Source of the DNA: Crossaster papposus
Taxonomy: Eukaryota; Echinodermata; Asteroidea; Velatida; Solasteridae
Assembly: GCA_037893245.1 (NCBI GenBank)
Contig: JBAIAA010000741.1
Location: 1-64,000 of the forward strand
Direction: 5' to 3'
DNA: 64,000 nucleotides
Shown here: positions 25,501 through 64,000 of the stretch, in pieces
How positions within the stretch are numbered: position 1 is the stretch's first letter
How the letters are laid out: each line of letters begins with the position of its first letter
The notes under the pieces: generated by a model
Told to the model about the DNA's origin: nothing
What the model saw: only the letters and a program-made list of their open reading frames with translations
Database searches by the model: none
Made by a program: the position numbers and the translations under genes

Positions 25501-28500
25501 TGCCTTCCATTCCGAGGCATTAACTCACTTGTGCTTTGTCAGCTCTGCCTGCATCTCATGAGCTTCCTTCTCCAAAATTCCTGCAAAATTCAAGACAAAA
25601 ATAAATACCAAAATAATAAACACATTTACCAGCCAAAATGCCATGTGCTTTTCATGCTAAGCAAAAACCAGCTGAATGCCAAGTTAAAAACAATATACAT
25701 CATCTGAACATTTGGATTAACCCTGTTTTTGTAAAGAAAGAATGTTCATGCCAAACATTCTTTGTGCTTAGCAACTCCTTGACATTGACACCAGGGGCCA
25801 ATTTCATAGAGCTGCTAAGCACAAAAATTTGCTTAGCACAAAAACAATCTTGCTCAATAAAAACAGGTTACCAGCCAAAACTCTACGTGTTTTTCATGCT
25901 AAGCAAAAAAACAGCTGATTATCAATCAAAAACAATCAAGATCACGTGAAAATTTGGTCTGTAACCTTGTTTTTGCCAAGGACAAATTTTCATGCTCAGC
26001 ATTTTTTGTGCTTAGCAACTCCTTGACATTGGCACCTAAGGTTCCTAAGCATTATAAGCACTATTAACTGTCACAAAAGATTTGAAAAGATATTGCGTCT
26101 TTGTGTAAGTGGTAGGTGCGAGTTGAAAGCGAATGTTCTTACGTATTTTATCCTCCGTTCTTTTCTTGGCGTTGTCAGCCAGCAGTGCTTGGCTGTTCAG
26201 ATGGTCGATCTGCCGCTTCAAAGACTCATTCTCCAATTGGAGTTTACGGATTTCCGATTCCAGTTGATCTGTTGGGAATGTTATGAAGTATTATACAGGG
26301 CTCACCTCACTCCCCTCAAACAAACAAATCAGAATCCAATATAAGTTATTTTTTTCCATTTTGATCAAATTACTCACTGAAAAATATGGCGTATCCAGGG
26401 ATAACATTGGTTTGTAGTTTACATTTAGTTATGAACACCCCTTAACCATTTCGCGTCGGGTTTTATTTGTTATTTACCCGACTCGGGCGTGAAATAATTT
26501 GTCACACACACCGAACCCAGCTAGCCCAGGCCGGGAATGTCCAGGGGCAGCACACCCACACTTGCCAGCTGTGAGACGGTCACTGACAGATATTTTCAGC
26601 CTCGCTCCGAGTTGCTCATGGTGTTTATCAGTCATCCGTTTTGATGACACGTTCTCCGGCGTGAACTGGTTAAAATTTCTATTGGTCTGTGTCTAATCTT
26701 TACACATATAAAACACCTTCAGGAGAACACCTCAAGAATTACAGAGTTTAAAAGAAATTCCGAGACCAGTAAGAATCCTGACAAAAATATATGAAACCAA
26801 AAATATATTAAATCAAAAATAATTCGGGCAAAATTTCCAAAAACTGAAAAAATGCCAGAAAAACTAAAAAGAAATTATTTTAAAAAAATCCTGAAATATG
26901 GAAAAATCTTGAGAAATCTGACTGCTGCTATCGTTAGGAGGGAATGCATTTGTACAATCAATGTATCGTACCTCTGTGATCCTGTGCAGTTAGTGAGGCA
27001 CCAAGGCCTGTACTGTCCAGCGTACGCGACAGGTGGTCTGTGACGAAGAGTTGATGTCGTCCTTCAAGCTCGTGGTAGTCCGACTTCAACCGTTCGTAGT
27101 CCAGCTTGAGCCGTGTTCGTTCCCTTTCCAACCTGCAACGTGAAGAAACAAGGGCAAAGTTCTTATCCGAGACAACATACCTTTACAGTAAATCGGCAAG
27201 CTTGGTTGATGCCATGCTTAACCAGTTCGCACCGGGATTATTTTAACCTCACCAAGCCGAGACGCGGGTTGTTTTTTTATGAAACATGATCCGAGGCTGG
27301 TTCAGGCCGATGGTACCGGAAAGCACACCCACGCATTTCCGGCCTTGCTTGATGCTGACAGATATTTCCAGCCTTGCTCGTGGCGTGTTTATGCGTCCGT
27401 TTTGAATCTTGGGGAAAACTTTGCGTGTATATGCGCCCTCCAACGCGAACTGGTTAAGTGAAAAATTCTCATTTATTGTGGCAGAAAATTGGGGGTTTAC
27501 GATGAACATATTTCATGCGCAGAAATAGGTAGAAGGAGCTATACAGTTTTCATTGAATATGCATGCAGTTCAACTTGTTGAATGATTACACAGTTTGAAA
27601 AGGGCTTTTTTAGAGAGATTTTTTCTATTTTTTTTTAGGTTTTAGAGAGATTTTGAAGAGTTTAAAGAGTTTTATAGAGAGTTTTTTCAGAATTTTTTCA
27701 AAGTTTTTCCAGAGTATTGACAGAGTTGTTTGCGTTAATACATACTGGTCGTATTGGACTTTTGACACAGAGTCCATGGCATCGCTCTGCAGACTGCGTT
27801 TCTCCGTCTCCAGGTGAGTGACTTTGGTCATCAGCTGCTGATTGTCTTCCTCCAAGGAACGCGACTTGTCTTCCAAGTGTCGGCATTTGTCTTGAAGCTC
27901 GGTGGCGGCTTTAGAACGGAGAGAAGTCTGGTGCCCTTCACTCTCCATCTGAGCGTGGAGATAATAAACCAAGTCCGGTTAAACCTCATTTGGATTAAGG
28001 ATCGTACCGGTACTAAACACCACCTAACAATATTTTGCCTGGCTTGCTTTCATTTAGAAGAAATCACAAAATGTAGGTGATTTCCAGTTGACTGATTTTG
28101 GGAATTACAGAGTTGTTTGAACACAAAAGTATAATATCCACCGAGCTGAAACTTCTACTGATTACGTTTTGAACATGCGCAGTTGAGATACCAAACTAGC
28201 TTTACCTTTGTGTGTAGTAACTCTTGGTTTTTTATGTCAAAACAAAATCAAACATTTCAGAATAACGTGGTTTTGGCAGACTCCGATATCCCAGTCTAAA
28301 CCGGGTTTGACTCACCCTTTGGATCCTTTCCGACAGCAAGGAGTTAAGTTCCTGTAGTTTCATGATCTGATCGGCGAGTTCTTGACAGTTGTGGCAGGGG
28401 ACGGGCGTACTCCTAGCAGACCGTCTACTGCCTCCGTCGGTCATGTCGAGACCCAGAGAAGCCTGGGCTCTCTCTCGGGCTAACTCCTCTCGCAACTCAT

Positions 28501-31500
28501 TCACTTTATCCCTAGGAACCAAAGAGTCAATACAAATTGAGTAATAGAGGGTGGCCCACAAACAGACAAGCATACTTCCACTACCCAGAGACCAAACTAC
28601 CTTTACCAATGGATGGAGAATCTCGATTTTGTCTCCAGACCCTATTTTGTGAAGCGAAATTCAGAGGTACTTTTACCCTGACAAATAACTATACCGTGCC
28701 GCGAATTTAACATGGCATATAGTTTAGTTGATAGAGCACCGGTACGATGATCCCGCAGTCACCGGTTCAAACATGTTCCAGTCAAATGTTGTTGTTTTAC
28801 TTGGAATTTTGTTTTTTAATAACACACCTAGTTGTTTCCCTTTGTGGTTTTGCAAGAATTTTAGATGTGTAATGAAAAAGTACAAAAAGACAAATATACG
28901 GGACTTTCACAAACCAATTTCACACAAAAATGACTTCCAAACATGTGCAAGACAGCAGCCAGTAACTCCGTCAATGCTTGGATTTTTTTCTTCAAAGCAT
29001 AAGAGATGCACTTACTCGGCTAATCCCAGCTCGGCTCTGAGATGGTCGACCTGGGCTTGAAGCTGTTCGGCCGTCAACCGTTGACCTCCAAGACTCTAAT
29101 GCAAAATGTCATTTGTCAACAATTGTCATAATGTCAATTGTCATATTGTCATAATGTCAATTGTCATAATGTCAATTGTCACAATGTCAATTGTCATAAT
29201 GTCAATTGTCATAATGTCAATTGTCATAATGTCAATTGTCATAATGTCAATTGTCATATTGTTATACTGTCTTCCTTATAATACCCACAAACTGTCAGGA
29301 CGTTTGGCCTATTGATCAAGGTTGGCGAAGCATTGTCCTGTTAAAAAAAGCACCTTTGTTGTCAGCTTCTCAAACCGAATCTTGTTAGATTTACTCTTAT
29401 AGTTGTTTCTGCAGATCAGCGTAGTAGGCCCTGGTGGTAATGTAACCCTTTTCAAACTTTTTGTGTAATTATTCAACAAGTTGAACTGCAGGCAAATGTT
29501 GTGAAAACTGTAAAGTACATCTCCTACCCAAGGGCCACGAATTTATCAATCACTCCTTGTAGGTTACCGTAATTTCCTGCGGTAAAGCCGCACGGCAGTT
29601 AAGGCGCAGGTCCCTAAAATCACCCCCAAAAAATTCAAACGTCAACAGATAAAGCGCACCGCCGAAAAAGGCGCATGCTTGAACGCACCCAGAAGAACAC
29701 CAGGCGCCACCCGGTGTAGATACATCGCCACAAAGGGGTCATTTTGTTGCCTTAGAACGATCCCACTATTCCAAGCAAGAATTTGCTGAGTACTTGAGTT
29801 TATCTGGCACGCAAACAATGTATGAAAACTTCAAACCGGTAGTCACAATATCGCACGAGGTTTATTACTTTGCCGATAGTATCATACATCACTGCAGTAT
29901 AAACTGCATGCATGTACATGTTGTATGCACATGTACATCACATATGCAGCGATCGCGTGCGGGGTATCCCTAATTGCGACACCCCCTAGTCTTTTTTCCA
30001 GTCGTTGTTAATGCTCCGCGCTGTGTAGTTCGGATGGTGAATTGCATGAAGCCGGAACGTAGACGAAAAAACGTTTAGAAAAAGGCCACATAGTACAGGC
30101 CAGCTTTTTATCGCTGTTGTACGCGTCATGCAGCGCACGCTGTAGTCTTGTTTGCAAGACTGCAGCGCACGCTGTAGTCTTGTTTGCAAGACGATCTTAA
30201 TCGCGGTATATGCAGCGCGCGTAGGCCGCCGATGCGGTAATTCGCGCGTGGTCTACGGCGTACGTTAGAGGGCGCCACGCATCGCGAAGATCGTCTTGCA
30301 AACAAGACTACGCACACTGCCGAGTGCTAAATCACATGTGTGTGTACATGCACACCCTTACATGTACGGCCGTAGGGGGATCAACACATCGCGGCATTGT
30401 TAATGGAAACACGGTCACAATGTCCGGAGAGTTGAGCTAATTGGTTGACCGCATTATTGAGTAAGATTGCGGCGTTCAAAGAATTCTTCACACAAAGACC
30501 ATCACTTTGAACTCAAGCGGTATCATATACGGCGCACCGAAAGATAAGGTGCGGTGATGTTTTTGTGGTCTAGAAAGTCAGATAAGCCGCGTCTTTACCG
30601 CAGGAAATTACGGTACTTTCTTTTCCTTTTTTATTGTATTATTGGGGGGGGGGGGCCTACCTGTCCTTTGGAGAGGATGTTCTTTTGCATCTCAAGGAGA
30701 TGGATGACCTGCTGGTCCTCGGCATGATCCTGAGCTAGCTGCTTGTTCTCCTCTCTCAATCGATCAGCCTCCTCGCGGTATTCTGCGTACTGCTCCTGCT
30801 TAATCCTGGCTGTCTGTAGCTCCGACTTCAGCTGTACATACTGCAAAAACAAAACACATGATCAAGAAAACTTTGTCAAACTTGCTCCAATAAAAGGTTT
30901 CTTTAACCCTAACTCCCTAGACAACAAAGGAAGTTGGAGGATTTTGAAGGAATTGTATTGTTCAATAACAATGCTGAGGGAGTTAGGGTTAAAGGTGACA
31001 GTTATTTACAGACTATAGGATGATAGCTAAAAATGTTCCAAACCAAGGTGCCCGTTTCGCACCACAGTGACCACACAAAATGGTAACAACAATTTGGTAA
31101 CAAAAATATAGAAAAATGCCAACAAACGATGTTGCTTGTCAAAAGTCAAGCATATTTTTTGGTTATTAAAAAAGACAATGACAATCGTTTTGCGGTCAAC
31201 ATTTGTTGTCTCTCGGCCCGGAATCCATCAGGTCAATAAAATCATATGGTGACCAGCCTCTTTTGGATACTTTATGAACACAACGCCTAAATACAAAATA
31301 CCGCCCACTGTTTTCCATCATTATTACATGTACACTAACAAATTTACAAAGGCCTATATTCTAAATATGTGCAGTTTTAGTTTAGTAACATTCGTTAATA
31401 GAATCTACACCCTTGAAACCTTCCATATGCCAAAATACATGTGCTGCATTAGTGGGCAACATTTTGATTAGTTACTTTTTCCTGTGATTCTTCTAGTTTC

Positions 31501-40500: not shown

Positions 40501-43500
40501 TTTATTGACTTGGAACAGTGATAACTGGCCAGTGGCATTATGTATTTTAGTGGGGACACACATACAAGGTGTAAGTGTACATACACTTACAGTTGACCAG
40601 GAACTGTGCCGTGACCATGTGGGTCACTCGCGTATAAATGCCTGTGCATTCTCCAAATTTCTAACATTTTGACAAGTCTCATGCCTTACTGTCCTGAACC
40701 ACACAGAATTCAACAGGGTCTCCCTGGGCCTTTGGTACTGAGTCAAACAAAGTCTAACAACAAGTTGTTACGGTTTGGTACCAAACCTGCCAAAACCTGC
40801 CAAAAGCTGCAGTTGGAGTTTGATGGGTTTGGGGTAGTTAGGTGATGCCTGCTGGGCAGATCCATGTTTGTGCACAAATTTCGGGAAAACTCGAAACTTT
40901 GTACGGCTTTTGTACAGCTATTTGCATATCTGCGTTTGTATTCTATACAGTGCGTTACCGAAGCCGATACGCCCAAAACCAAAACACACGATTAGCAAAT
41001 GAGTGTTCATTATTTTTTTCGGCGCAAACAGCGTAAATTATCCGCGTGTGCGTACCTATCTGCTGCAGATGTTTTTGCCGTGATTTTTTTTAACTGGCAT
41101 GACTTGCGTTTGTTCTACTTGCACGCGCGTTGCATTTACAGTACACTTTCAAAATTCAATCCATCTATTATTATGTTCTACAACACGTACATGAATTCAA
41201 AATTTCTGCGAAAAAGATGAATTCAAAGTATCGCCGCGCGTAAAAATGAGGAGTTAGCGCTCTAGTAATTTAATATAGCTCTATGCCGATATCTCCGACT
41301 TTTAATACTTCCCATTTACAAAACACCCCTCCGAGATCGACCGATAGCACAGATCCACCACATTATAATGCCAGAGATTTCCTACCACTTGTAGTGTACC
41401 AGATCGACCAAAAAGTTGTTACACAAATAAACCACAGGCACAAGGAACACATGCTTTTTGGGGGGCCAACCCTAACGCTCCTCAATCCTCAAAAATCCTC
41501 ATTGCAGTTTTGGAGGATTTTTGAGGATTGAGGCTGTATGGGGTTTTAAAAAAATGAGGATTTTTGAGGATTGAGGCACAATGTTGTTTCACAATGTTTC
41601 AAGTGTGGAGGATTTTTGAGGATTGAGGCACAATGGGGTTTTCAAAAAATGAGGATTTTGGAGGAATGAGGCTGTGGGGTTTTCAAAAAATCATAATGAG
41701 GATTTTGGAGGATTGACTTTTTTTCAATCCCCAGATTCCTCATTGCAGTTTTGGAGGATTACAAAAAATGAGGATTTTGGAGAATTGAGGCACATGATGT
41801 TGTTTTAAGTGTGGAGGATTTTTGAGGATTGAGGCTAGATGGGGTTTAAAAAAAATGATTTTGGAGGATTGAGGATGGTTGCTAGCAAAAAGGGCCTAGG
41901 GGGTTAAACGTGTTGTGAATAATAGCAAATCCCAACAATAGACCTGTGAAGTGAACGTCGTACGACTTGGCGAAGGTACGACTACGAGTCGAAGACGAAG
42001 GTACTACGAGTACGAGTTGGCGTGATGATGTAGAGTTGAAGGTACGCTAGTTGACGAAGGTAAGAATTGCCCAAGGGCAAGTTACGAGTACCCCTAGAAC
42101 TCTGGGTCTCCCGACGCCCGTAGGGCGGAGCCCCATAGATAGAGAGGGTTTTTACAGGTTAACCGCCGTTAAACAATAGAAACCGTGCACAAATTCCGGG
42201 CAATAACTCCGTACTGCCGCACGGTCTACCCCAAGTAAAAATTTGTATGAGTACTTTATCAACTCACCCAGCTGTGGCCTACCAAAAACAGGTCGAATCT
42301 CGGCCAATTTCTGTAAAAAAGGTGAAAACTATGCCCGTTCCGCAAACGCGACTGTTACAAGATGGCGGATAACATCGTTCAATGGGTGCTGTTTTCCAAA
42401 CCCTGGTTTTGGTATATTGTGGCTGTGCCTCTGGCGCATTGCTAAACTGTATGATAAAGCCGCGCAAAATGAAGCTCGTGTTTCAAAAACGGCTAATGCG
42501 CATGCGGCTTGAAATTACGCACGAGTTATCCGCCATCTTGTAACAGTCGCGTTTGCGGAACGGGCATAGTTTTCACCTTTTTTACAGAAATTGGCCGAGA
42601 TTCGACCTGTTTTTGGTAGGCCACAGCTGGGTGAGTTGATAAAGTACTCATACAAATTTTTACTTGGGGTAGACCGTGCGGCAGTACGGAGTTATTGCCC
42701 GGAATTTGTGCACGGTTTCTATTGTTTAACGGCGGTTAACCTGTAAAAACCCTCTCTATCTATGGGGCTCCGCCCTACGGGCGTCGGGAGACCCAGAGTT
42801 CTAGGGGTAAGTTACGAGTTGACGAAGGTACGAATTGCCCGAGGTACGAGTTGACGAAGGTACGAATTGCCCGAGGTACGAATTGCCCGAGGTACGAGTT
42901 GACGAAGGTACGAATTGCCCAAGGTACGAGTTGACCTTTTTCTACCGAGTTCCATTAGTGATTACAGTTCCCACCTGTCAAAACTAAAGTGTCAACTTAT
43001 GAAATGATGTTTCTCGAACAAACTTGTTGAAAACTTACACACAAAACCGCCCCTGTTTACAGCACTATCACGTCTATTCAGCGAAGATAGACCATCTCGG
43101 ATTTATAGAGAACACACTCAGTCGTGATTAACATGTTTGACATTAGCCCAGTGTAACTTGTATTTGTAAGAATAGTTCCTTGCATATGTTTAGTTGTACT
43201 TAGTCCCGTTTCATACATGTTGGTATTTTGTGTGTGTAAACGTACACGTACGTATAGGCATAGCGCAAGAAACTGTACGTACGTAGCTTGGTGGCGCTAG
43301 GGACGCTATCTAGGTCATGGGGGTTAAAATTGCAAGGACTGGACGATTATTCAAGTGGGGTGATGGTTTAAATGATGAAATTAATTTTGAAAATGTCAAA
43401 GCCCATGCAGAGTTTATGATAATAATATATATAATAATAATAATATAATAATATAAATAATAATAATAGCGCACGTATCTATCATTGTACTGGTACTGGG

Positions 43501-44564: not shown

Positions 44565-45520
44565 AATATGCACAAGTTCCTAAAACGATTGAACAATCGC
44601 CAAATTCACTGTCTTGGGGTCGAGATTTTCCAAATGGGTTATTTACCCTTTTAACGAAACACCTCTTAAAACTTGTTACATGATAATTTTCCAATGCATG
44701 CTAAACAATTTTTTTAAAGCATAGAATTATAATGTTATCGAGAAAGCCTCTATTATGTAAGAAGTCCTAAATGATCAAGTGGAAGCAAATATCATAGCTA
44801 AAGCTACTATAATATACTGTGACATATTTCTTTTGAAAATGTATTTTTACAATTAATAATAATTGTCAATTTGATTGTCAAATTGTCAAAATGTTGGACT
44901 TGGCTGGTGCGATTTTGTCTGGAATGGCGCCGGCTAATTTGCATATTTAGGAGTAGGGGTAGCACTCATTACTTTGAAATGCATTTGTCACATTCTCTGA
45001 CCCTCAAAACATAGGTGTACACTTAATTTGTTGTGTTTAGTTGTCTAGTTATATAATATTAGAGACAAATGGTTTTTATATAAGGGCAGCGGATAATTTG
45101 CATATTTAAGAGTATAGGGTTACCACTGATTAATTTTAAAATGCATTTATCACATTCTCTGACCCTCAAAACACCTAATTTGTCATTTGTACTTGTCTGG
45201 TTACAGTGCAGCAAATAGTTCAACAAGCGTTAGTGTCCAAGTGGGCAAATTGGCGGACATTTTGATTATGCAAATTGGCCAGTCAAAAAATATGCCCAAT
45301 CCAAAACGATTGAATGATTTCAAATTCCAGGGCCGGGAGTCAAGATTGTTTACATGGGGGTATTATTCTCCTAATAACACATCCCTTAATTAAAACTGGT
45401 TACGTTAGTAATTTTCAAATTCCAAACGATTCTTTTAATAACAGTTTTATAGCAAAGACAATTGTCAAGAAAGCCTCTTTATAAGTAAGACGTGGAAAAT
45501 GATCAAGTGAGCAAATCATG
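44565..45520. repeat. Diverged duplicated segments
   Basis: A block with AAAACGATTGAA, AGAAAGCCTCT and AAATGATCAAGTG occurs at 44565-44795 and 45285-45515. A second block with AATTTGCATATTTA and CACATTCTCTGACCCTCAAA occurs at 44935-45060 and 45090-45200. All are in the same orientation. The second block pair sits between the first. Confidence 0.65.
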
Positions 45521-46312
45521 GTAACCTGCATTATTCACAATACGAACAGCCTTCTTCTGCAGCGTAAACAGTTTGTTGAAACCATATACACTTGAAGAAC
45601 CCCCAAAGGCAAGTAGACCATAATTTAAGTATGAAAGGATAAAGGAATTATACAATATTAATAGAATACTTTTAGGTACAAAAATTTTCAAACGGTTCAT
45701 TATACCAACATTTTTTGAAATTTTACTACACAAAACATCAATATGATTATTCCAAGTGAGATTTTCATCTATATAAAGTCCAAGAAATTTAGTGGTTTTG
45801 ACTTGATGGAGTACAGTACCATCAAAACTAAGGGGAACTGTAGCATGGTATTTATGTTGCCGTGGACAAAAAATAATATAATTAGTCTTAAGTAGATTAA
45901 TTGATAATTTGTTCGAAATAAGCCATCCACTTATTTTGACAAGTTCAATATTAACATTTTTGATGGCTGTATCCACATCATGGTGATTATAAATTAAATT
46001 AGTATCATCTGCAAATAGACAAAAGGACATGAGATCGGAAGAACTACATATATCATTGATATATATAATAAATAACAATGGACCTAACACACTGCCTTGA
46101 GGGACTCCACAAGTGATGGACTGCTCTAAAGAATGTTGGGAATTGTAGGAAACAAACTGCCTTCTATCAGATACATAACTACTGAACCAGTCCAAGGCCA
46201 ACCCTCGGACACCAAAATGCTCTAATTTATTTAAAAGGATATCATGATTCACCGTATCGAAGGCCTTGGACAAGTCCAGGAAAATTCCAATAGAAAACTG
46301 CTTGATAGGCAT
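45503..46312 (-). mobile_element. Non-LTR retrotransposon (LINE) reverse transcriptase fragment
   Basis: An intact 269-residue frame covers the RT palm: motif A in GIFLDLSKAFDTVNHD, motif B in GVPQGSVLGPLLF and the catalytic FADDT of motif C, followed by a KTTKFLGLYIDENLTW segment. This arrangement is typical of Jockey/CR1/L2-like LINE ORF2. The endonuclease half, the start of the RT domain and the 3' end are absent, so it is truncated on both sides and inactive. Its upstream edge (about 46307) lies inside a P450 exon on the same strand. Its downstream edge meets the duplicated block ending at 45515. Confidence 0.92.
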
Positions 46313-46777
46313 CGATAAAGTCTTCCAGATTGTGCGGATCGAGTTTCAAGCGGTGGGAGTCGATTATGCTATGTATGAACGCATAGATCTTAGCGTAATC
46401 AGCTCGCATCTGTTTTAGCTTCGACTTGAAAAAAGGCATGCGTTTGAAAACGCTGCGAGTCAACAGCACGATTCCACCAGTTCCTGTCGATACGATCGCT
46501 TGACTCAACATGGCCAAAAGTCGCTTGAAGTCTTGATCGTCGTAATCGTAGCGTTTCCCGAACACGACAGAGCAGATGACGTTGGACACAGCGCTGCCGA
46601 ACAGGGGTTTTGGGTTGAAGGGTTTGCCGTGGAACGCAGACATTTCCTTAAGTAACTCCTCGCCCTCGATTCTGATCTGATCTTCGAAACTCGACTTGCC
46701 CACGCCCAAACTGCGGAGGACATTCAAGCTGAATCTGCGCATTTCGATCCATGGTTCTCCCGAGGTCCCCGATACGC
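46308..46777 (-). pseudogene. Cytochrome P450 exon 2, cut by LINE sequence
   Basis: An acceptor (TTTTATCCAAG) at 46778 opens an exon that joins exon 1 in phase (G|GC). It encodes GVSGTSGEPWIEMRRFSLN, which is the helix C W-x-x-x-R-R-F signature of CYP2-clan enzymes. Next come NVICSVVFGKRYDYDDQDF and finally NLEDFIDAY before helix I. At that point the reading frame runs into LINE sequence and stops 22 codons later. The I-helix, ExxR and heme-binding Cys loop are not found downstream on this strand. The gene looks truncated. Confidence 0.8.
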
Positions 46778-47764
46778 CTTGGATAAAATATATGAGGAAT
46801 TACAAAATAGTAAACTCTTTTTTGATTTGTATATTTCAGGTCGCATTCCAGTCAGACAAGCACTGTTTACAACATTTGTTATCCTTTTCAAAAAAATTGA
46901 CAATAAAGTGTAAATAAAGATTGTTTCCTGCTACTATAAAGGTTATCATCTTTCGGGAATGGCGTCGGCCCATCCTCATTTTGCTGATCGACTAAGCCCA
47001 AGTCCCACTATATAGAACATACGATTTCCTACGACCAGTTCAGGGCCGGTCGCGTGGATATTTCCTGCGATTTGAGCCTATAGCAGTCACATTGTAAGCA
47101 TCGTGCGATCCTAATTATTGTTGCCGACTGGTACCACTACTAATTGCACGACTGTCGCACGACTACCCAAGACTACGCAGGGTGGGCCTATAATTATGAG
47201 CTGTAATTAGTTCCTGGCTATACAACCAGATGTTTCGACTGCATGGCTGTTAGTCTAGCCCTAGACCCTTGTGTTATTTCGGCGCCCACCACGCGCGCAG
47301 ATTCGTTAACGCTGACTCTTTTTCAAATCCCGGCTTCGTGTGCGTTCTGGTCTCACGCATGCGTAGTTTACAAAATGCGGCTGGATCCATGTTCGCACTG
47401 GAGCCGACGTTTGACAAACGTACATGATTTTGGATTCCCCTAAGGGTCTAGCACTAGTTGGCAATCAATTGTTAACTTTAACCTTAGTTTTCGACGATTC
47501 TCCCTCGCTTTTCTGAGGGATCCAATCAGCGACCGAGTTTGAGCCTCATCATGAATTATTCATTATACACAAATACAGGATATGACTGGGTATGTGTACA
47601 CAAGACAGTGTACATGTAATGTACATTGTACATGTACAGTGTATGTGATGGCGACTGTATGCACGTATAGTATGCATTGCGCGAAATATGCAGACTTAAT
47701 AGCATTGTGTGGCCGATCTTCCGGGGCAGTGCTACTACTAGTGCAAGCTAGCTGCAGCCGCCAA

Positions 47765-50130
47765 CCGGCGCGGCCTTAGTCTTTGGGCAAGACGTTGCTT
47801 AATTCGCAGCCACGAGAGGGCGCTATCGCGAAAAACCATCATCACTCGCCATCCTGTCCGTAACAACGTCTTTGGAATTACGTCGAGGTAGAGATATGCG
47901 CACGCACCTGCTTAGCCTAATGAATGCAGCGTACATTACGTACTTTGCATAAACATACATATGCATAGGTCTAACACCCTGACTCAACTTCTCATTGCAT
48001 CTGGATGTACATGTACATGTACATGTGTGTGTACACATGTATACGTGTATTGTACACAAATGTACATGTACATGTACATACTGTACACATTATCATCAAA
48101 CGTGTTCAACGTTATTCGTGAAAATGGAAGACTTTTTGGTACATATTAATTAGGGTCATCTCTTGCCAACAAGTTTTAAAGGCAGAATCCGTTTGGTATT
48201 TTGAAAATGACAACGATCCCCTTAAAATATATTTATTTTCATTAATTTCTTTAGTCATAAATTCAGGACGAATTTCACCTTTGCAATTTATTTTTCAAAT
48301 TTCTTTTTAGGATCTGTATACACCCTTCACATACACGGATCGCCAACTCGTAGTCAATCGCAAGCATCCGTAAATAACTCGTTGGTATCCGTAAATAATT
48401 CGTCACAACTCGCCACAACTCGCAGACACAAAAAAATCTTACGATTGTCCACGGTTTGAGTTTTCCGTAAATAACTCGTAAAAAGCTTGTAACAATCCGT
48501 AAGTATCGTAAACCACTCGCAACAACACGTAATTATCCGTAAACTGCTCGCAAAAATCCGTAAATGACTCTTAACAATTTTTTTTAACAATTTGTTACGG
48601 TTAGTTTACGGATTATTACGAGTGCTTACGTGTTGTTAACGATTTCATTCGGGTCGTGTTACGATGGCTTTACGGATTGTTACGAGTTATTACGAGCACT
48701 TTAATAATAAATACGTATATTTTACGAATGATTGTACATGTACATTGAGATTTGCAGGATTTATATATTTTTTGGCAACAAATCCTGAGGACTCGTAAAT
48801 ACTTGTAACTAACTCGTAACTATTCGTAACAACACGTAAACAGGTCGTAAAATGCTCGTAAGTTGCTCGTAGTTATCCGTGACAACTCGTAACAAATCGT
48901 GGAATTTTGACGTAAATACATGGCAATAACTCGTAATAATCCGTAATAAACCGTAAATAGCCCGTAATAACTCGTAACAACACTTAAATCAGTCGTAAAA
49001 CTGGCCAAATCGTAAGGATCCAGGAACGATCTGTGAATCTGTGCGATCCGTAAAGACTCGTAAGAAAAATCCGTGTATGTGAAGGGGGTATCAGTAACCC
49101 AACTTCTCAAAGGAAACAATTTTGCTTACGTAATTATGTGCCTTTTCATATAATTTTAAAATTGCCCCCCCCCCCCTCCTTTGTGGTCGCCATTGTGCTA
49201 TTGCGGAATATTCTGGATTTTTTCATGATTCTTTGTAGGTTTTTAGGGAATAGGGGGGGGGGGGGGCGTTAGGTAAGTACTAGAGTGTATTGGTGGTATA
49301 TGGTGGTCTAAGGGTAGTCCCTTGGTCTCATCATATCGTGCTGGGTATATTACTGGGCTAAGCAAGCTTCAGGGTAATCATCAATTAATTCTTACTAAAA
49401 TATTCCCACAGACTTTTATGCAATTTAAGCTGCAGCCAAGGAATTCGGACATGGCCTATTTTTCAGAGGGGAAAACTATAATTAGTATTAGACACATTTT
49501 ATCTTTACACTGCAGTTGCCAATTTAGTCATTCTAATTGAGTTTCATACAAAGCAGCAAACAGCGACATTTAGAGTGCTGTTTGTTAATTCTTTTTGGCC
49601 TCAAATGAAATTCAAAATACATGTGTGAATCATTTTCAAAATTTAATTCTTTGATAACACTTGCAATTGAGGTACATGTAAGATTAGGATTAGGAATGTA
49701 TTCCTACCTCAATGCACTTATAATAAAGGTTAAATTTATCCAAATCACTAGAAATAAACATGATGTCCATAAATTAAACGCAGATTAAACACCATCGCCT
49801 AGGTTTCCTGTCCGCTCCTTCTGCCATCTCGGAGCCCACCGTGCACACGGAGAAAACCGTGCTGGCGACTTTCTGATGACTCGTGTGAGTATCTCGGTAC
49901 TTGCTACCTGACCTATTCTATACTAGCTGTCGTATGTGCGCGTGCGCGAAGAACAAATTTCCTAAATAGCGCATGCGCACTAGTTTTTTACCGTTTTCGG
50001 TAAAAAATTTTACGTAATTCCAAAGACGTTGTTACGGACAGGATGGCGAGTGATGATGGTTTTTCGCGATAGCGCCCTCTCGTGGCTGCGAATTAAGCAA
50101 CGTCTTGCCCAAAGACTAGCGCGGCCTGGA
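47765..50130. repeat. Inverted repeat pair, about 120 bp, 2.1 kb apart
   Basis: Arm 47765-47885 (GTCTTTGGGCAAGACGTTGC to AACGTCTTTGGAATTACGT) is matched by arm 50012-50130 in reverse complement with very few differences. It may represent the ends of one nested element. Confidence 0.8.
48321..49088. mobile_element. TIR element with internal ACTCGTAA repeats
   Basis: CCCTTCACATACACGGAT at the left mirrors ATCCGTGTATGTGAAGGG at the right. The 770-bp interior is built from dozens of degenerate (A/T)C(T/C)CGTAAnnA phrases on the plus strand at both flanks, with the inverted form (TTACGAG) in the centre. Confidence 0.7.
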
Positions 50131-50575: not shown

Positions 50576-51395
50576 GCGCGACACAATAACCCTCAGGTCT
50601 GCACGTATTTGCTTAACCGTCCATCATTATCACGTGATATGAATACTGCATATATTACAATAGTCTGACCACGCCCACGATGTGCCAACTTGTCCAAGAC
50701 CTTCGACAGGGTCCAATTCACGGGTGGGGGTTCGTCGTGAAATAGCGCCCTCTATAACATCGGTGGTTTGTGTCAGTGATCGCGAAATAAACAACACGAA
50801 GGTCTTGGAACCAAGACTACATGGCTGTGACCACATGACTGATCGTGCGACCGTTGACTGACTGCAACCGGTCTTGACCAATCGGGCGACATGGTGCGAC
50901 TATAAATAGGCTAAAGGGCATGCAGACGATCGATCTTGGGCACTCGCACGGTCGATGAAGGACAACTCACGCGCCGTGGAGCCTCGCACGACTAGTCTTG
51001 CTAAGTCGTACAACTTGTCGTGCAATCAGGTCGATCTATACTCGCACGACAAGTCGTGCTAGTATAGTCATGGAGGAATAAGAGTAGTCGTGCAAGTCGT
51101 GCGATCAGCCACGACAATAAAGGACCACCCGAGACTTGTTCCATGACCATTGCACGACCGTCACAGACAAATGAAGACTATTAGACGGTGACAAGATCCG
51201 ACTACATCAGTCGCAGCCAGGCTTTTTAACAAGATCAAAAACCTCTCTGCGACTGATTTCGGTTGTGCGAATATCCAAGACTAATAACGACCACCCAAGA
51301 CTTGTGGCACGACTTTTCTGCGACTGCCTGCAATTTCCAGTCGCAGCCAGTCGTATAGGTTGTCCTAGTGGGACTTGGGCTTTAGGCGTGCTTAC

Positions 51396-51750
51396 CAGCT
51401 CCTAAAACTCCAGGTGGCCTATCATTCAACTGTGGGTGTTGAAATGCCGCCTTGGTCGACTTGAAATCATCTAAAATCACCACAGTAGTGTTGAGCAGGC
51501 TGACTCGGAACACCGGGCCGTACCATTCAGCGTACTTCCCAAGAACCTGATGGGGCTGCAAGCCCCGTCTTAGCCCCCAAACGAAGGCCAGAAGAGATCC
51601 GATGATCGGTAGTGTCCGGGGACCGGGAGGGAGGTTAGTTGCTGGCCGGCGGAAAAACCAACGGAGAACTAGTAAAAGGAGAAGGACGAACGGTAAAACA
51701 ACTCGTGCGATGCCTGAAACAAACCACAGCAAATTCATAACCACTCCCAT
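51396..51750 (-). CDS. Cytochrome P450 exon 1 (CYP2-clan, microsomal), gene broken downstream
   Basis: The start ATG at 51750 opens an N-terminal anchor helix (about residues 5-33, with LPFVLLLLLVLRWFF). Next come a basic stop-transfer stretch and the proline hinge LPPGPRTLPIIGS of microsomal P450s. The A-helix region and beta-sheet 1 follow (YGPVFRVSLLNTTVVILDD), and the exon ends PPGVLGAG at donor GTAAGC, phase 1. Such enzymes are ER-bound monooxygenases for lipids or xenobiotics. The next exon (46777) joins in phase, but the catalytic half is missing from the window. The product is therefore at best an N-terminal fragment of about 270 residues. Confidence 0.85.
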
Positions 51751-51853
51751 TTTGTTCTGCTAAAAGTTATAGTGTTTTTTTTTCAGTCTGAATTACGAGT
51801 CTAAATGGAGGAATAAGAAGTTGAATAAATATAGTCCGACCTGCATGTGCGAC

Positions 51854-53725: not shown

Positions 53726-56700
53726 GTACGGTGTAATTGTAACGTTGTTTAAATAAATTTAAGGCCCTGCCGAAGTCTAAGAAAAAGAAAAATTAATGTT
53801 GCTGAAAATGTACTGTCGCCGGCCGAGTGCATGCAATTGAGTCTGTGCGGCTACGGCACTGTTGTCTATGGCCCAGCACTACACTCTGTGCTGGGCTTCC
53901 ACGGTAAGCCAGGCATACCGCGAACAGTGCCAAAAACGTCGGATTTTGTTTTCATTTTTTCTTGGAAATCATTCGGTCTCAAACTCTGCATGCAGGTTTA
54001 CTTGCCATAGTTAGCGCATCGATATTTCGCCAAAAATTGAAACTTTTTTGTGGTTCCGTCTGGTGTAATTTGTCTCCAAGTCTAAATCTGCGATTTAATT
54101 TAAACTAAAAAAAAGAATTCGCGATAAACGCAAAAACAATATTGTTATTGCGTTTATCACGATCTTTATTTTTTTACTCCACTCTAGATCGCAGATTTAG
54201 AGACAAATTACACCAGACCGAACCCCGGAAAAGTCCTAATTTTGGCGAAATATCAATGTGCTATGGCAAGTGAAGTGAACCTGCATGCCGAGGTTGAGAA
54301 CGAATGATTTCACTGAAAAAATGAACAAATTCCGACGTTCTTTGCACTGTTTGCGGTATAGCCTACAGCACAGAGTGTACTCTGTCTCTAGACTAGTGCG
54401 GGGCCTAGACCCAATAATTGGGGCGTTTTCACTCCTTTTTCGAATTTTTGATTTTGTCTGTCGTTCTACGCCCCAACCGTTGTAAAGCATGGTGCCAATT
54501 AAAAATCCAGTTGTGACCACAAGTTGACAAAAACATGCCAAATACCTGACAATGTATATTGGAAAGCGCACACTGGCTTCTATACATAAGAAGAACTATT
54601 ATGGCTTTATTGGTACTCACGGTTATTTGGGGTTGCAAATCCGAGCAATTTTGACCAGCTTTTAAAAACAATGATGCCTATAACGTCGCGGTCTAAACTA
54701 CATAGACGTCCCGACAGCACCCGACTCACGTAAAGAGCACACTATGCGAAGACGGGGGACACGACAATGGCTTTTCGAGCGACCACCAACGACTGTTTTA
54801 TGGTGCAAGAGCGCAGGCTTGCATCGCTGCACTGTATAATGCGTGTGCGCGCGTAGCGGTACTTGTACAAAATAATGCAAATTCGTATTGAAAATGAACC
54901 GGGCTGATGGCTGGCAAGTGGCACACGATCAGGGGCCAATTTCACGGAGCTGCTAAGCACAAAAATTTGCTTAGCATGAAAATGTGTCCTTGGTAAAAAC
55001 AAGGTTACAGACCAAATGTTCACGTAATCTTTATTGTTTTTGATTGATAATCGGCTGGTTTTTTGCTTAGCATAAAAAAAACGTAGAATTTTGGCTGATA
55101 AATTGTTTTTAATGAGCAAGATGTTTTTGTGCTAAGCAAATTGTTGTGCTTAGCAGCTCCGTGAAATTGGCCCCTGATCGTGTGCCAGCCATCAGCCCGG
55201 TTCATTTTCAATACGAATTTGCATTATTTTGTAAAAGTACCGCTACGCGCGCACGCGCATGCGCGCTATACAGTGCAGCGATGCAAGCCTGCGCTCATGC
55301 ACCATAAAACAGTCGTTGGTGGTCGCTCGAAAAGCCATTGTCGTGTCCCCCGTCTTCGCATAGTGTGCTCTTTACGTGAGTCGGGTGCTGTCGGGACGTC
55401 TATGTAGTTTATATAGACCACGATGTTATAGGCATCATTGTTTTTAAAAGCTGGTCAAAATTGCTCGGATTTGCAACCCCAAATAACCGTGAGTACCAAT
55501 AAAGCCATAATAGTTCTTCTTTAACATGTACTTGTATAGAAGCCAGTGTGCGCTTTCCAATATACATTGTCAGGTATTTGGCATGTTTTTGTCAACTTTT
55601 GTGGTCACAACTGGATTTTTAATTGGCACCATGCTTTACAACGGTTGGGGCGTAGAACGACAGACAAAATCCAAAATTCGAAAAAGGAGTGAAAACGCCC
55701 CAATTATTGGGTCTATGCGGGGCCATACGTCCATCTGTAGGCCATACGTCCATCAGTGCAAAAAACCCGAATTTTTTTTCACTTTTTGTCATGGAAATCA
55801 TTCGGTCTCAAACTTGGCATGCAGGTTCATTTATAGCGCATCGATATTTCGCCAAAATTAGGATTTTTCCAGGGTTTCGTCTGGTGTAATTTGTCTCTAA
55901 ATCTGCGAACCACGGAAAAGAACTAATTAATTTTGGCGAAATATCGATGTGCTATGGCAAGTGAACCTGCATGCCAAGTTTGAGACCGAATAATTTCCAT
56001 GAAATAAGTGAAACAAATCCTGTTTATTTTTGCACAGATGGACGTATGGCCTACAGCACAGAGTGAACTCTAGGGCCATAGACTAGGGCTAGGAGGAGTA
56101 GGACTAGCATGGAGAGCATAGTCCGAGTTATCTGACTCTAGTTTAGTTATTGCTTTGTTAACATTTGGACATCATCTGGCGCTACTACTAGAGTCCGAGG
56201 GAGTACAACATGCATCAGGCCAAATGTCTGGTTCAAAATGTTGCCAAAATCCAAAAAAATACTTAACAAAATACCTCAAAATCCCCTAAATCGCGTTCCA
56301 TATGTGTCCAAAATCATCATAATGGGCTTCGGGGGGGGGGCTCACGATCAATTCTTGACCTGCAAATTCAGGAAATTCAACGACAGTATTCAATACTGCA
56401 CACTTTTTGTTCGCCATTATTTTGAACAATCGCATACCGACCACACCACTATACGGAGGGGTGCTCTGCAATGTCGCAGGTCAGTGTATCGCGCGCGCGA
56501 CACGATACACTGACGTGTGACATCGCTGAGCAGCCCTGTGTATATATATCATATCATCTCAATGAAGGTCAATCAGTGAAAACAAGTTGAAAAGACATGA
56601 ATCTGGGACTGAGAAACAATTCCAATTTGTTTAGGAAATACATGTAGTAAGAAAATTGTCTTGACTCTCTATAGACTTTGTACATGACCTCTGAAGTAGC

Positions 56701-59700
56701 GCCAGGATACATTCCTTCCAAAACGGATGATGGGGATAGATTGAATATATCTTTGAAAAAGGTGTTTGTGTGATCTTTTAATAAGCCACTTTGACATTCC
56801 AACTGCGCATGTGCACAACAAGATTCAACAATTTTTCTATTGGGATAAACACGGCAGACAAATGCATTTTGTGAATTTTTTTGTGAAATCGACGATGGGA
56901 ACTTTGTTCGAACAAAAGTTTGGCCACACAAAACACCTGAAAACACCAAAACGAAAAAAAAAATATGTTACCAGGCCTTGCGCTAACTTTTTTTCCTGGA
57001 TAGCCCACCGGGCTAGCAAACTGCAGATTTTACTAGCCCGTTTACATTTTCGCTAGCCCGTATGTACAATGCACAAAACTATTCGTTCGGCGCGGGCACG
57101 TACACGTACCGGCGCTGTACGTACAATAATGTACATGTACATCCGTGGTAATGTACACAGAGGGCGCTGTTCTGAACAGACTCTTTATCAGGCGCTACTA
57201 CTAGTGGCACGGCAGCACGCTCATGTACTATACAGCTACGCAGTGGGCCGTTATGGTAAGAAAGGCTGAACGATGTGAAAGAGAATAGTGCACATATACA
57301 TGTGCGGTACCCTGCGCCGTAGTTTATACTATACTAATCTCACTGAAGCCCACCAGTCTACTCTATTCGTGAGATCGCAATGCACTGCATGCACGCGTGG
57401 ATCGAGCGCTCCCAGGCTATCGATAATCATGCCGAAAAACACAAACAAAAGACAGTTTATACTCGGTTTATTTTGATCCGATATTTATTTAATACACAAA
57501 AAAAAACAATACAAATTTTAACCTGTATTTTGATCTAAACATTTACAGGTAGGTTACTGAATTTTTCACTAGCCCACCGGGCAACCAAGGAAGTGGGTCT
57601 GGGTAGCCCGGAGCAGTTTTCGCTAGACTTTGTACGCCGGGCTAGTACTATTTCGAGGCCTGGTTACTTAGTAACTTTAGAACACGACGATCTCTTTAAA
57701 TTTGCTAGTACCTGCTATGCTTTTGCACGCAATCGCTGAAATGTTTATCTCGAAAAAAAAAATCGTCAAATCTTCATGTGCACATGCGCAGTTGGAATGT
57801 CGAAGTGGCTTATTGGATTTACAACAACTACCGTTGTGAGAAACTACATACAATACATGTAGGCTTACTTCAGTAATATACATCTTTTGTGGTTACTTTG
57901 CAGAAAGTTATTTATAGGAGCTGTCAGCAGTCAAGTTACAAAAGGTGAGCTGTATTATCTAGAAAAAAAATATAGATTTGGTAATTTGTATAATAATTAA
58001 TCCTAATTCCCTACTGCCCTTCTTAGGTACTGGACCCGAATCTGCCAAAATCCATCAGTCGCTTTTCTTTTTTATACATGGGTTGCTGGAACCACAACTG
58101 AAGTGTTGGTAGATTTTGATGGACTCAGTACACATGCCTTACGTGACAACACCACCACAAGCAAAATTCATCAAATTGCGATAGCACTGCTTCAGGCCAC
58201 TTTTTCCAATTCCATCATAATCCATCATTTGTTTTGTTCACGCTAGGACTGCAGGACCAAATCCTCTTAAATCTAACAATGGATTTTGGTGGTTTGGGGA
58301 AAAAATAGGAGAGGGATATTGAACGAGAGGGATATTTTGTTGTGAACTAAACTATTTCTGCTTGGACATGAAAACCTTTATCACAAAAGAAACTAATAAT
58401 TTTTGTGTTTGTTCAGAGGAGTTTCAAGCCTTCTTTGAGGAGTTTGGTGAGGTGTCGGACATTGTCTTGATGTTTGACAAAGAGACAAATCGAAACCGAG
58501 GGTTCGGCTTTGTTACGTTCAAGGACCCAACTTGTGCCTCAAAAATCCTTTCTTCGTCCCAACCTCTGAAGTTACATGGACGAGCAGTAAGTTTTTTGAT
58601 TTGTTTCATTGTTTTGGGGGTTTTAAATAGATTTGATTTTAGGTTGGGAAGTACACGTACATTGTGCATTTTCAAGTCAATATACTTGTATATAGAACCT
58701 TTTGAAACCCTGCAGTTCAGTTTTAGCTAAAAGGATGTTATTGAAGTAAATGTCACACTCCCTGCTTGTCCTGAGCTTAACCATACAAAATAATTTTCCT
58801 GTTGGCTATATTCCACGAAAGAATTTTGAAGTACGGGTCGGTGTTTTCCACTGCCTTTAAATTTAGAGCTTTTTGAGCTGAAAATGCCACCACGCCACTA
58901 TGGTAGTTAATGGGTACTCAAGATGACTAAATCACGGCCTGAATCATTTCTGAACGTTAAGAAGGCCGGGTAAGGCCTACGACTTCGACCCATTGCATCC
59001 TCCAAAACTGGATTTTTTTTGCCGTTTATCCTCTTTTTTTGTTTAAGTTGATTTGTTTTTGTTTTGGTGTAGCTTGACCCTAAACCTAGCGTCCAGCGTG
59101 GTCAGTTAGCCCCTCCCACTGAGCGTCCATCGCAGAATAAAAGCCTGGACAAGAAAGTATTTGTGGGCGGAATCTCTCAGAGCACTGACGAGGAAGGGCT
59201 CAAGAATTATTTCAATAGCAACAGCTATATGGTAAGACGGTACTTTTATTGTTTGGACAAATGTTTCGACGCTTTAGGCTAGATTTTTAAAAGATCGACT
59301 GTCTGAGTCGTTGAAAATCACTCGGGAGCGACTTTCTTTCGGATTCCAACTTAAGAAAGGATGTTGCATCCTGCCGCCACGTTTTTCCTTATATATCTTT
59401 CTAATACATCAATCGGTGCAAAATTGTTACAAAGAAATGAATCTGGGACTGATAATTGTTTACAAATTTTGTAAATTGTATTGTAAATTTTCTAAAGATC
59501 CTGTGCTGAACATCACTGCAACCGTTTTTTTGTTTTTCCGGCAATAGTTTTTTAGCTAAGACGTTGCGTATTCGTATATATTCTTATCGGCAGCCTTGCA
59601 TTAAGTTTGCCTGTGTGAAGCCAGAATCCATTTGGGTTGACCCAGTCCTTCCTAATCTGTTTTAATTCGACGCAACTCTGGAATGCCTGTCTGTACCAGG

Positions 59701-62610: not shown

Positions 62611-62733
62611 TAGAGGTTGGAGGAAAACCCCAGAGGAATAATCTGGGGGAAATCCACCTGTGGACCAGGCAGGAATCGAACCCAGGTCACAGCAGTGGAA
62701 GGTAAGGACAGTAACCACTGTGCCAACCTGAAT
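62611..62733 (-). mobile_element. tRNA-derived SINE
   Basis: On the minus strand, AGGTTGGCACAGTGGTTACT (A-box region) and CCTGGGTTCGATTCCTGCC (B box) are spaced as in tRNA-derived SINEs. CCCCAGATTATTCCTCTGGG and GGTTTTCCTCC follow in the body. Confidence 0.75.
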
Positions 62734-62752
62734 CTCCATGTAGAAACTACGC

Positions 62753-63522
62753 AACTCATGAATGTAACTCGGTACCAGTAACTCATGATTGTAACTCGGT
62801 ACCAGTAACTCATGAATGTAACTCGGTACCAGTAACTCATGAATGTAACTCGGTACCAGTAACTCATGAATGTAACTCGGTACCAGTAACTCATGAATGT
62901 AACTCGGTACCAGTAACTCATGAATGTAACTCGGTACCAGTAACTCATGAATGTAACTCGGTACCAGTAACTCATGAATGTAACTCGGTACCAGTAACTC
63001 ATGAATGTAACTCGGTACCAGTAACTCATGAATGTAACTCGGTACCAGTAACTCATGAATGTAACTCGGTACCAGTAACTCATGAATGTAACTCGGTACC
63101 AGTAACTCATGAATGTAACTCGGTACCAGTAACTCATGAATGTAACTCGGTACCAGTAACTCATGAATGTAACTCGGTACCAGTAACTCATGAATGTAAC
63201 TCGGTACCAGTAACTCATGAATGTAACTCGGTACCAGTAACTCATGAATGTAACTCGGTACCAGTAACTCGTGAATGTAACTCGGTACCAGTAACTCATG
63301 AATGTAACTCGGTACCAGTAACTCATGAATGTAACTCGGTACCAGTAACTCATGAATGTAACTCGGTACCAGTAACTCATGAATGTAACTCGGTACCAGT
63401 AACTCATGAATGTAACTCGGTACCAGTAACTCATGAATGTAACTCGGTACCAGTAACTCATGAATGTAACTCGGTACCAGTAACTCATGAATGTAACTCG
63501 GTACCAGTAACTCATGAATGTA
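62753..63522. repeat. 27-bp minisatellite, about 28 copies
   Basis: The unit GTAACTCGGTACCAGTAACT followed by CATGAAT repeats with almost no variation. One unit has CGTGAAT and one has CATGATT. Because 27 is divisible by three, the minus strand stays open as a 9-residue repeat MSYWYRVTF. No splice or start context supports translation. Confidence 0.95.
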
Positions 63523-64000
63523 CCGATCCTTGGAGTAGTTTTTTCATTTTTTTATGACAGGAGTAATGACAAGCATGTTCTTAATATTGTCACAAAAGTC
63601 GTCACAAAAATCTGAATACATTTGTATACTGTGAGAAAATGTGTGGCTGTACAATGTGTAAACATGTACATGTAGTTCTGATGAATGTTATGTATTAACT
63701 TGTATTGTGCTAGTACCTAAACAAACATTAGGCAGTGATAAGCTATATTTATGGAGCCCAAAAGTAGACAAGCCTATTTTTCCTTTTTTCTGCTAGCAGA
63801 TTTTAGGTGTTTTTTTGTAGTTGTGACGCCCAAAATTAAAAAAAAATCTGAATTTTTGTTGCTCACTTTTGGGATGCTAAGTTTTAACACGGAAAATTAA
63901 CACGGCTTGAATTTCTTTTTTGCAACTTCAAAAAGCCCTCTACTTGGGGGCCTACTAAAAGTTGGTCCTCTATTTTGGGGATTATAAATGTCATCTAGTG

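What the first reader, a model, noticed from the sequence alone, without database searches (positions are those of the whole stretch)
53820..56095. Chain of alternating palindromes with a MITE exactly at the dyad
One module occurs four times with alternating strand. This creates three dyad axes near 54140, 55053 and 55912. The central one has arms of about 740 bp and an intact 243-bp MITE as its loop, whose TIRs extend the symmetry. A likely origin is fold-back or template-switch repair started at a MITE hairpin, repeated at least twice. The arms differ by substitutions and indels, so the structure has aged in the genome. Transcripts of RRM intron 1 would fold into very long dsRNA, a possible substrate for ADAR or Dicer.
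Basis: partly seen in the sequence, partly recalled or inferred. Interest (0 to 1): 0.7.

Follow-up and report, generated by a model that had tools for sequence, protein, structure and literature searches.

The report
Fold-back transposon family around a MITE
The symmetrical DNA is one copy of a fold-back transposon family, found at many places in the same genome, whose loop is a smaller captured transposon; here it sits between two older palindromic repeats in a gene's first intron.

Summary
A module of about 175-280 bp does occur four times in alternating orientation. The large palindrome between the two pairs is a separate transposon, X (54406-55715, 1310 bp): matched ends TAGACCCAATAATTGGGGCG, arms of 524/539 bp (510 of 517 aligned sites identical) and a perfect 9-bp target duplication TGCGGGGCC. 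A late search of the window's own genome gave 39 other scored places with the same arm-MITE-arm core. All 39 fetched stretches carry the MITE at the dyad (the query contained the MITE); they and the window represent 14 insertion sites, 12 with a perfect and different 9-bp duplication. So X is a dispersed, probably Mutator-like fold-back family. In 11 copies the two arms share the family's variants, indels included, in 428 of 462 cells: the arms evolve in concert. That voids my first argument that the MITE is older than the arms; whether it seeded them stays open. The chain of three dyads is nested transposons of different ages, not serial fold-back repair. X lies in intron 1 of an hnRNP-A/B-like gene and could form about 520 bp of near-perfect dsRNA.

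The parts
54397..54405 (.). Left 9-bp target-site duplication of X, TGCGGGGCC
   Evidence: Exact direct repeat abutting the left end
54406..54929 (+). Left arm (long TIR) of element X, 524 bp, begins TAGACCCAATAATTGGGGCG
   Evidence: 510 of 517 aligned sites identical to the reverse complement of the right arm, 5 indels
54930..55176 (+). MITE forming the loop of X
   Evidence: Six other, more distant copies of the MITE family in the window; same MITE at the dyad in 39 of 39 fetched X copies
55177..55715 (-). Right arm (long TIR) of element X, 539 bp, ends ...CGCCCCAATTATTGGGTCTA
55716..55724 (.). Right 9-bp target-site duplication of X, TGCGGGGCC
53862..54140 (+). Module A, first half of older palindromic element AA'
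   Evidence: A against A': 202 of 227 locally aligned sites
54141..54395 (-). Module A', second half of AA', ends ...TCTAGACTA
55721..55895 (+). Module B, first half of older palindromic element BB'; outer end truncated, with a 15-bp direct duplication GGCCATACGTCCATC
   Evidence: B against B': 115 of 123; A' against B: 135 of 157
55896..56085 (-). Module B', second half of BB', ends ...GGGCCATAGACTA
   Evidence: A against B': 145 of 169; A' against B': 144 of 172
53726..57903 (+). Intron 1 of an hnRNP-A/B-like RRM protein gene; contains the whole structure
   Evidence: Spliced model in frame; RRM_1 E 1.6e-15; PDB hits hnRNP D-like, A2/B1, A1, DAZAP1, Musashi among the 60 shown of 205

Best explanation
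X is one copy of a dispersed, non-autonomous, cut-and-paste DNA transposon family of fold-back type (probably Mutator-like) with about 525-535-bp terminal inverted repeats and a captured MITE as its loop. Shown: matched ends; different 9-bp target duplications at 12 insertion sites; the MITE at the same dyad in 39 of 39 fetched copies; the MITEs inside X far closer to one another than to dispersed MITEs; arms that share subfamily variants. Inferred: a transposase encoded elsewhere recognises the TAGACCC ends; the MITE was captured once, before the family spread; the two arms of a copy are kept alike by copying one from the other (gene conversion, or hairpin-templated repair when the element excises or replicates). 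At this locus X landed at the junction of two older palindromic MITE-like elements, AA' and BB', in an intron. No function is shown; the likely effect is a long dsRNA hairpin in the pre-mRNA.
For: Window: ends and 9-bp repeat exact and abutting. Genome: 40 scored places including the window's own, all over the full 351-base query at 94-100%; 2937 candidates were not all scored, so this is a lower bound. 24 of 39 fetched copies have both ends and a perfect 9-bp repeat, 1 has one mismatch, and 14 lack one recognisable end in the searched range. After grouping copies with shared flanks, 14 sites with the window, 12 of them with perfect and mutually different 9-mers. MITE inside X: 2-9 differences of 244-247 from the window's against 20-36 of 242-247 from three dispersed copies. 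Concert: 42 informative columns, 11 copies, left equals right in 428 of 462 cells; mean difference within copies 0.66%, between copies 1.58%. X is young by a measure that does not use its two arms: its nearest other copy differs at 6 of 533 sites, while the modules agree at only 84-93.5%. Literature: MULEs typically have TIRs over 100 bp and 8-10 bp TSDs (PMC5225508, passages); Tm1 has 9-bp TSDs (PMC3169594, passages).
Against: No transposase was found, so the superfamily rests on TSD and TIR length. The genome query held the MITE, so copies without it were not sought; the search with the arm alone did not complete 13 times. The concert count is inflated: several copies are near-identical, multi-base indels fill several columns, and a variant shared by both arms of one copy qualifies as informative by itself. 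34 of 462 cells disagree, and the L025-L030 group has MITE-end changes on one side only. Two flank groups with 28 of the 39 copies are X carried along in larger repeats, not separate insertions. X's place within a few bases of the AA'/BB' junction is unexplained.
Confidence: 0.95

Rival explanations
1. One reading: the chain is host DNA made palindromic in place by repeated fold-back or template-switch repair started at the MITE hairpin.
For: Four modules alternate and the MITE is at the central dyad. Hairpin-mediated foldback inversions are documented in yeast (PMC7467729, abstract and outline).
Against: The same element with the same MITE stands at 13 other sites, 11 of them with perfect 9-bp duplications of their own.
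Confidence: 0.02
2. Origin of the arms, route 1: the MITE seeded them. Strand switching at the MITE hairpin in an ancestral TIR transposon copied one half onto the other.
For: Exact centring; flanks GGCTGGCACACGAT inverted on both sides in 15 of 15 copies examined; both MITE ends carry CACGGAG in the same 15. None of 6 dispersed MITE copies in the window has symmetric flanks (best scores 18-23 against 867).
Against: Concerted evolution can produce the shared end variant and the young arms. My first dating argument (13 of about 157 interior MITE positions against 7 of 517 between arms) assumed independent arms and falls.
Confidence: 0.3
3. Origin of the arms, route 2: TIRs of an ordinary transposon grew inwards by arm-to-arm conversion until they met the nested MITE, whose own inverted ends stop or extend the symmetry.
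For: Concert between arms is seen and reaches into the MITE ends (one site about 34 nt in is A/A, C/C, A/C or C/A in different copies). Galileo TIRs recruit internal sequence (PMC4168063, passages).
Against: No intermediate with shorter arms was seen.
Confidence: 0.35
4. Origin of the arms, route 3: the MITE inserted at the dyad of a long-TIR element that already existed.
For: Some transposons prefer palindromic targets (Galileo, 15-bp motif, PMC4168063, passages). An AT dinucleotide on both sides is formally compatible with a 2-bp duplication.
Against: Needs a hit at the exact centre; the MITE's own TSD could not be fixed.
Confidence: 0.25
5. The dsRNA hairpin is a selected regulatory element of the RRM gene.
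For: X folds at -1103 kcal/mol with 612 pairs; 20 shuffles averaged -362 (sd 9.7). Intron 1 of an RNA-binding-protein gene.
Against: Any long-TIR transposon in an intron does this, and this family stands at many other places. No expression or editing data.
Confidence: 0.03

Closest known systems
Mutator/Foldback elements: Tm1 of Meloidogyne (PMC3169594, passages seen)
   Same: TIR-bounded family with mostly 9-bp TSDs, non-autonomous members, nested inserts; paired TIRs average 93% identity
   Different: Tm1 TIRs are composite with 13-15 bp tandem motifs; none in X
Tetris foldback transposon of Drosophila virilis (PMC4079207, passages seen)
   Same: Fold-back anatomy, 8-10 bp TSDs, complete copies without conserved ORFs; put in Mutator by its authors on TSD length
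   Different: Tetris TIRs hold 220-bp tandem repeats; X has simple arms and a MITE as loop
MULEs such as Muta1 of Aedes aegypti (PMC5225508, passages seen)
   Same: Long TIRs, 8-9 bp TSD, short imperfect terminal palindrome; X also starts with one, by eye (CCCAATAATTGGG)
   Different: Subterminal tandem repeats absent in X; no transposase known for X
Galileo (P superfamily) of Drosophila (PMC4168063, passages seen)
   Same: TIRs lengthen by recruiting internal sequence
   Different: 7-8 bp TSD against 9 bp; no MITE loop in the passages seen
FoSTeST and gap-filling models for Pack-TIRs (PMC8277862, passages seen)
   Same: Template switching inside a TIR transposon
   Different: They capture sequence from elsewhere; here one arm is copied from the other

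Membership tests
Fold-back / long-TIR DNA transposon | Long inverted repeats making up most of the element | tested here: met
   524 and 539 of 1310 bp; 21 of 39 other copies match the arm along its length on both sides
Fold-back / long-TIR DNA transposon | Target-site duplication flanking matched ends | tested here: met
   Window and 24 of 39 fetched copies; 12 different 9-mers by site with the window
Fold-back / long-TIR DNA transposon | Dispersed copies in different contexts | tested here: met
   39 other scored places, 14 sites with the window after flank grouping
Classical FB-type foldback (FB, Tm1, Tetris) | Tandem subrepeats within the TIRs | tested here: not met
   Tandem Repeats Finder at score 30: 0 rows; only scattered two-copy matches of 10-16 nt within either arm. 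FB proper is not claimed
Mutator superfamily (MULE) | 8-10 bp TSD and TIRs over 100 bp | tested here: met
   9 bp; about 525-535 bp
Mutator superfamily (MULE) | Relationship to a MuDR-type transposase | not tested
   X has no coding candidate (129-aa frame without Pfam match); an autonomous partner was not sought
MITE (loop element) | Short non-coding TIR element with dispersed copies | tested here: met
   247 bp; six other matches in the window
MITE (loop element) | Family TSD | tested here: inconclusive
   By eye at 4560, 12057, 25792, 33349 no consistent direct repeat; a possible CAAC at 4560 only
Modules AA', BB' as TIR transposons | TSD and dispersed copies | tested here: inconclusive
   AA' only a 6-mer GTGCGG; BB' an exact 8-mer GGGCCATA that lies inside the B' end; A...B' one 9-mer with a mismatch inside the ends. 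Genome search with AA' unanswered

The most novel reading that the evidence does not exclude
A MITE that landed inside an ordinary TIR transposon turned it into a fold-back transposon: strand switching at the MITE hairpin copied one half onto the other, the symmetric product then spread as a family, and the same arm-to-arm copying still keeps its arms alike. MITE capture would then be a general birth route for fold-back elements.
Probability: 0.3. Interest if true: 0.55.

Novelty: new member of a known kind. Interest (0 to 1): 0.35.

Why it matters
It replaces a tempting reading (serial fold-back repair at a locus) by a dispersed transposon family, through two plain tests: does the inverted symmetry end in a direct repeat, and does the unit recur elsewhere. 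The family is a good natural system for two open questions: how long-TIR fold-back elements arise, and how their arms stay alike. It also shows that identity between arms must not be used to date such a structure.

Tried and rejected
Rejected: one module making all three dyads. Rejected: assembly artefact (39 other places, TSDs of their own). The Fisher tests (X arms against A/A', B/B', A'/B: p 7e-11, 5e-6, 3e-11) used the global alignments, which included short flanks and split BB' off its dyad; the local counts are the better ones and no p was computed on them. Tried without result: TSDs for AA' and BB'; Pfam in X; Rfam over the window at gathering score (0 matches); patterns in viral contigs and genome contigs, 0 matches each, in collections of viruses and prokaryotes and so uninformative here. 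Nine paper searches gave listings with no report of a MITE seeding or looping a fold-back element that I could see; I opened six papers, five as passages and one as outline. In the random-position control, 2 of 60 draws scored over 40; the draw of 736 lay inside X itself.

Full report
Observation. The region 53820-56095 holds strong inverted repeats: the longest exact inverted match is 114 nt, against at most 18 (mean 12.2) in 200 dinucleotide-preserving shuffles. A module occurs four times in alternating orientation (A, A', B, B'), with dyads near 54140 and 55895. Between the pairs lies a larger palindrome centred near 55053 with a MITE as loop.

The central palindrome is a transposon, X (54406-55715). 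It begins TAGACCCAATAATTGGGGCG, ends with the inverse of the same, and just outside both ends stands the same 9-mer in DIRECT orientation, TGCGGGGCC. Of 20000 random pairs of 45-bp bins of the window, 174 share any exact 9-mer, and here it also has to abut both ends. A scan of the window for direct repeats abutting inverted ends (14 nt, at least 12 matching, or 13 for repeats under 8 bp; 80-6000 bp apart) gave at 9 bp four hits: X; an element at 47777-50118 (GCGCGGCCT, end TAGTCTTTGGGCAA); one at 42089-42809 (AGTTACGAG, in a tandem array and so ambiguous); and a short unconvincing pair at 29149. Other lengths: 4 bp 38, 5 bp 2, 6 bp 11 (not listed), 7 bp 2, 8 bp 2 (one of each in the 42089 element), 10 bp none, 11 bp 154 (the 25 shown all in a CAATT array), 12 bp 1 in a tandem repeat. 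A reversed-sequence control, at 12 of 14 throughout, gave 1 at 7 bp, 1 at 9 bp, and 0 at 8, 10, 11 and 12.

X is a dispersed family. The search of the window's own genome (1.02 Gb, 1841 contigs) with 54900-55250, which covers the MITE and the edges of both arms, scored 40 of 2937 candidates; it gave 40 places over the whole query, the window itself and 39 others at 94-97%, each also matching in reverse because X is symmetric. I fetched 5.4-5.7 kb around the 39. All 39 have the MITE over its full length at the dyad; 21 match the arm along its length on both sides, the rest have truncated, split or interrupted arms. With the end motif, 24 have both ends and a perfect 9-bp direct repeat, one (L042) has one mismatch, and 14 lack one recognisable end. 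Copies with shared flanks fall into two large groups (L010-L024, GTTAACTGC; L031-L036, L038-L040 and L043-L046, CGTCCCCCC). L010 and L022 clustered apart on 400-bp flanks but share TSD, X and about 150 bp of right flank with L017 at 99.8%, so I count them in the first group. That leaves 14 sites with the window, 12 with perfect 9-mers: GCCTATACC, GTTAACTGC, TCCTTGTCC, GGGTTGAAG, TCGTTAGAC, ACCCTAACC, TATGAAATG, CGTCCCCCC, GCTTAACCC, AGGAAAACT, ATACGGGGC, TGCGGGGCC. They have no common sequence that I can see.

The loop. In 15 of 15 copies examined closely (of 39), GGCTGGCACACGAT stands on both sides of the MITE and both MITE ends carry CACGGAG; three well-kept dispersed MITEs of the window read CATAGAG, CATAAAG or CAAGGAG. 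MITEs in X differ from the window's X by 2-9 of 244-247 sites but from three dispersed copies by 20-36 of 242-247: one capture, then spread with X. The 7-nt insertion beside the MITE in the window copy is absent in those 15. None of the six dispersed MITEs of the window has symmetric flanks.

Concerted arms. In an alignment of both arms of 11 copies (the window and 10 of the 15), 42 columns are informative. The variants that separate subfamilies, among them indels, stand on both arms of a copy: left equals right in 428 of 462 cells; mean difference 0.66% within and 1.58% between copies. This count is inflated by near-identical copies, by indels that fill several columns, and by the way columns were chosen; 34 cells disagree, and the MITE ends of L025-L030 differ on one side. 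Still, shared indels need copying between arms. It follows that arm identity cannot date the palindrome. I had argued from 13 of about 157 interior MITE positions against 7 of 517 between arms (five of six other window copies used) that the MITE is older than the arms; I withdraw that.

The chain. X is young without reference to its own two arms: its nearest other copy differs at 6 of 533 sites. The modules agree at 84-93.5%: A/A' 202/227, B/B' 115/123, A'/B 135/157, A/B' 145/169, A/B 129/148, A'/B' 144/172. In 50-bp bins identity is 0.77-0.93 in the module, 0.86 across the X edge and 0.96-1.00 in X. So X was inserted into an older pair of palindromic elements. Its TSD begins one base after the A' end and overlaps the B start; I cannot explain that precision. 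A shared preferred target is one idea, since the module ends (TAGTCTATGGCCC) resemble the end of the 47777 element (TAGTCTTTGGGC).

Mechanism. Shown: family, ends, TSDs, common MITE loop, concerted arms. Inferred: a transposase in trans moves X; one arm templates the other by conversion or hairpin repair. Three routes to the long arms remain: MITE-seeded strand switching (0.3), inward growth of TIRs by conversion up to the MITE (0.35), MITE insertion at an existing dyad (0.25). Relatives without the MITE would decide, but the search with the arm alone was unanswered 13 times.

Surroundings. All lies in intron 1 (53726-57903) of an RRM protein gene whose spliced start reads MGEEPGKLFIGAVSSQVTKEEFQAFFEEFGEVSD (Pfam RRM_1; hnRNP, DAZAP1 and Musashi chains). 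As RNA, X folds at -1103 kcal/mol with 612 pairs (20 shuffles: mean -362, sd 9.7); in the whole region the arms of X pair with each other (514 pairs), A with A' (203) and B with B' (119). ADAR or Dicer processing is untested.

Known kinds. X works like, and by TSD and TIR length fits, the Mutator/Foldback type (Tm1 PMC3169594, Tetris PMC4079207, Muta1 PMC5225508; passages seen). Membership in Mutator is not shown: no transposase. Tandem subrepeats of classical FB, Tm1 and Tetris are absent. The species is unknown; my guess of a marine invertebrate is recall, not a result.

Verdict. An ordinary kind of thing, a fold-back transposon family, with two features worth a specialist's look: a captured MITE as its fixed loop in every copy seen, and arms that evolve in concert.

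Noticed in passing
L010-L024, and L031-L036, L038-L040, L043-L046 (groups); contigs C18, C153, C156, C186, C582, C791, C1188 of G000: Two groups of X copies sit in larger repeats (up to about 5 kb of flank 98-99.8% identical to L017 or L036) that recur on the same strand about 230-300 kb apart within contigs, e.g. C156 at 241916, 506160, 769849. What this large unit is I do not know; weak PHD and FLYWCH matches below cut-off in L036.
   Followed up: partly
42089-42809: Palindrome with 285-bp arms 100% identical and a 151-bp loop, in a degenerate tandem array; TSD ambiguous (9, 11 or 2 bp).
   Followed up: partly
47777-50118: Element with 9-bp TSD GCGCGGCCT and about 107-bp TIRs starting TAGTCTTTGGGCAAGAC, between two cytochrome P450 fragments (46242-46799, 51382-51759, minus strand).
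   Followed up: partly
48325-49090: Inside that element, a nested stretch with inverted ends CCCTTCACATACACGGAT and many ACTCGTAA/TCCGTAA subrepeats, seen by eye.
   Followed up: no
56780-57814: Another inverted pair (62 nt, 87%) in the same intron 1, about 1035 bp end to end; no TSD found.
   Followed up: partly
25618-26037: Two MITE copies abut and share end variants (GGTG, GTCAAGGAGTTGC), as if tandemly duplicated.
   Followed up: partly
62618-63646: 27-bp minisatellite; long open frames on it in three listed frames.
   Followed up: no
45503-46345: Reverse-transcriptase fragment (RVT_1, E 4.9e-24) whose open frame overlaps that of a P450 exon.
   Followed up: no
54396-54405: X's TSD starts one base after the A' end and overlaps the B start: insertion at the junction of two older palindromes, unexplained.
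   Followed up: partly
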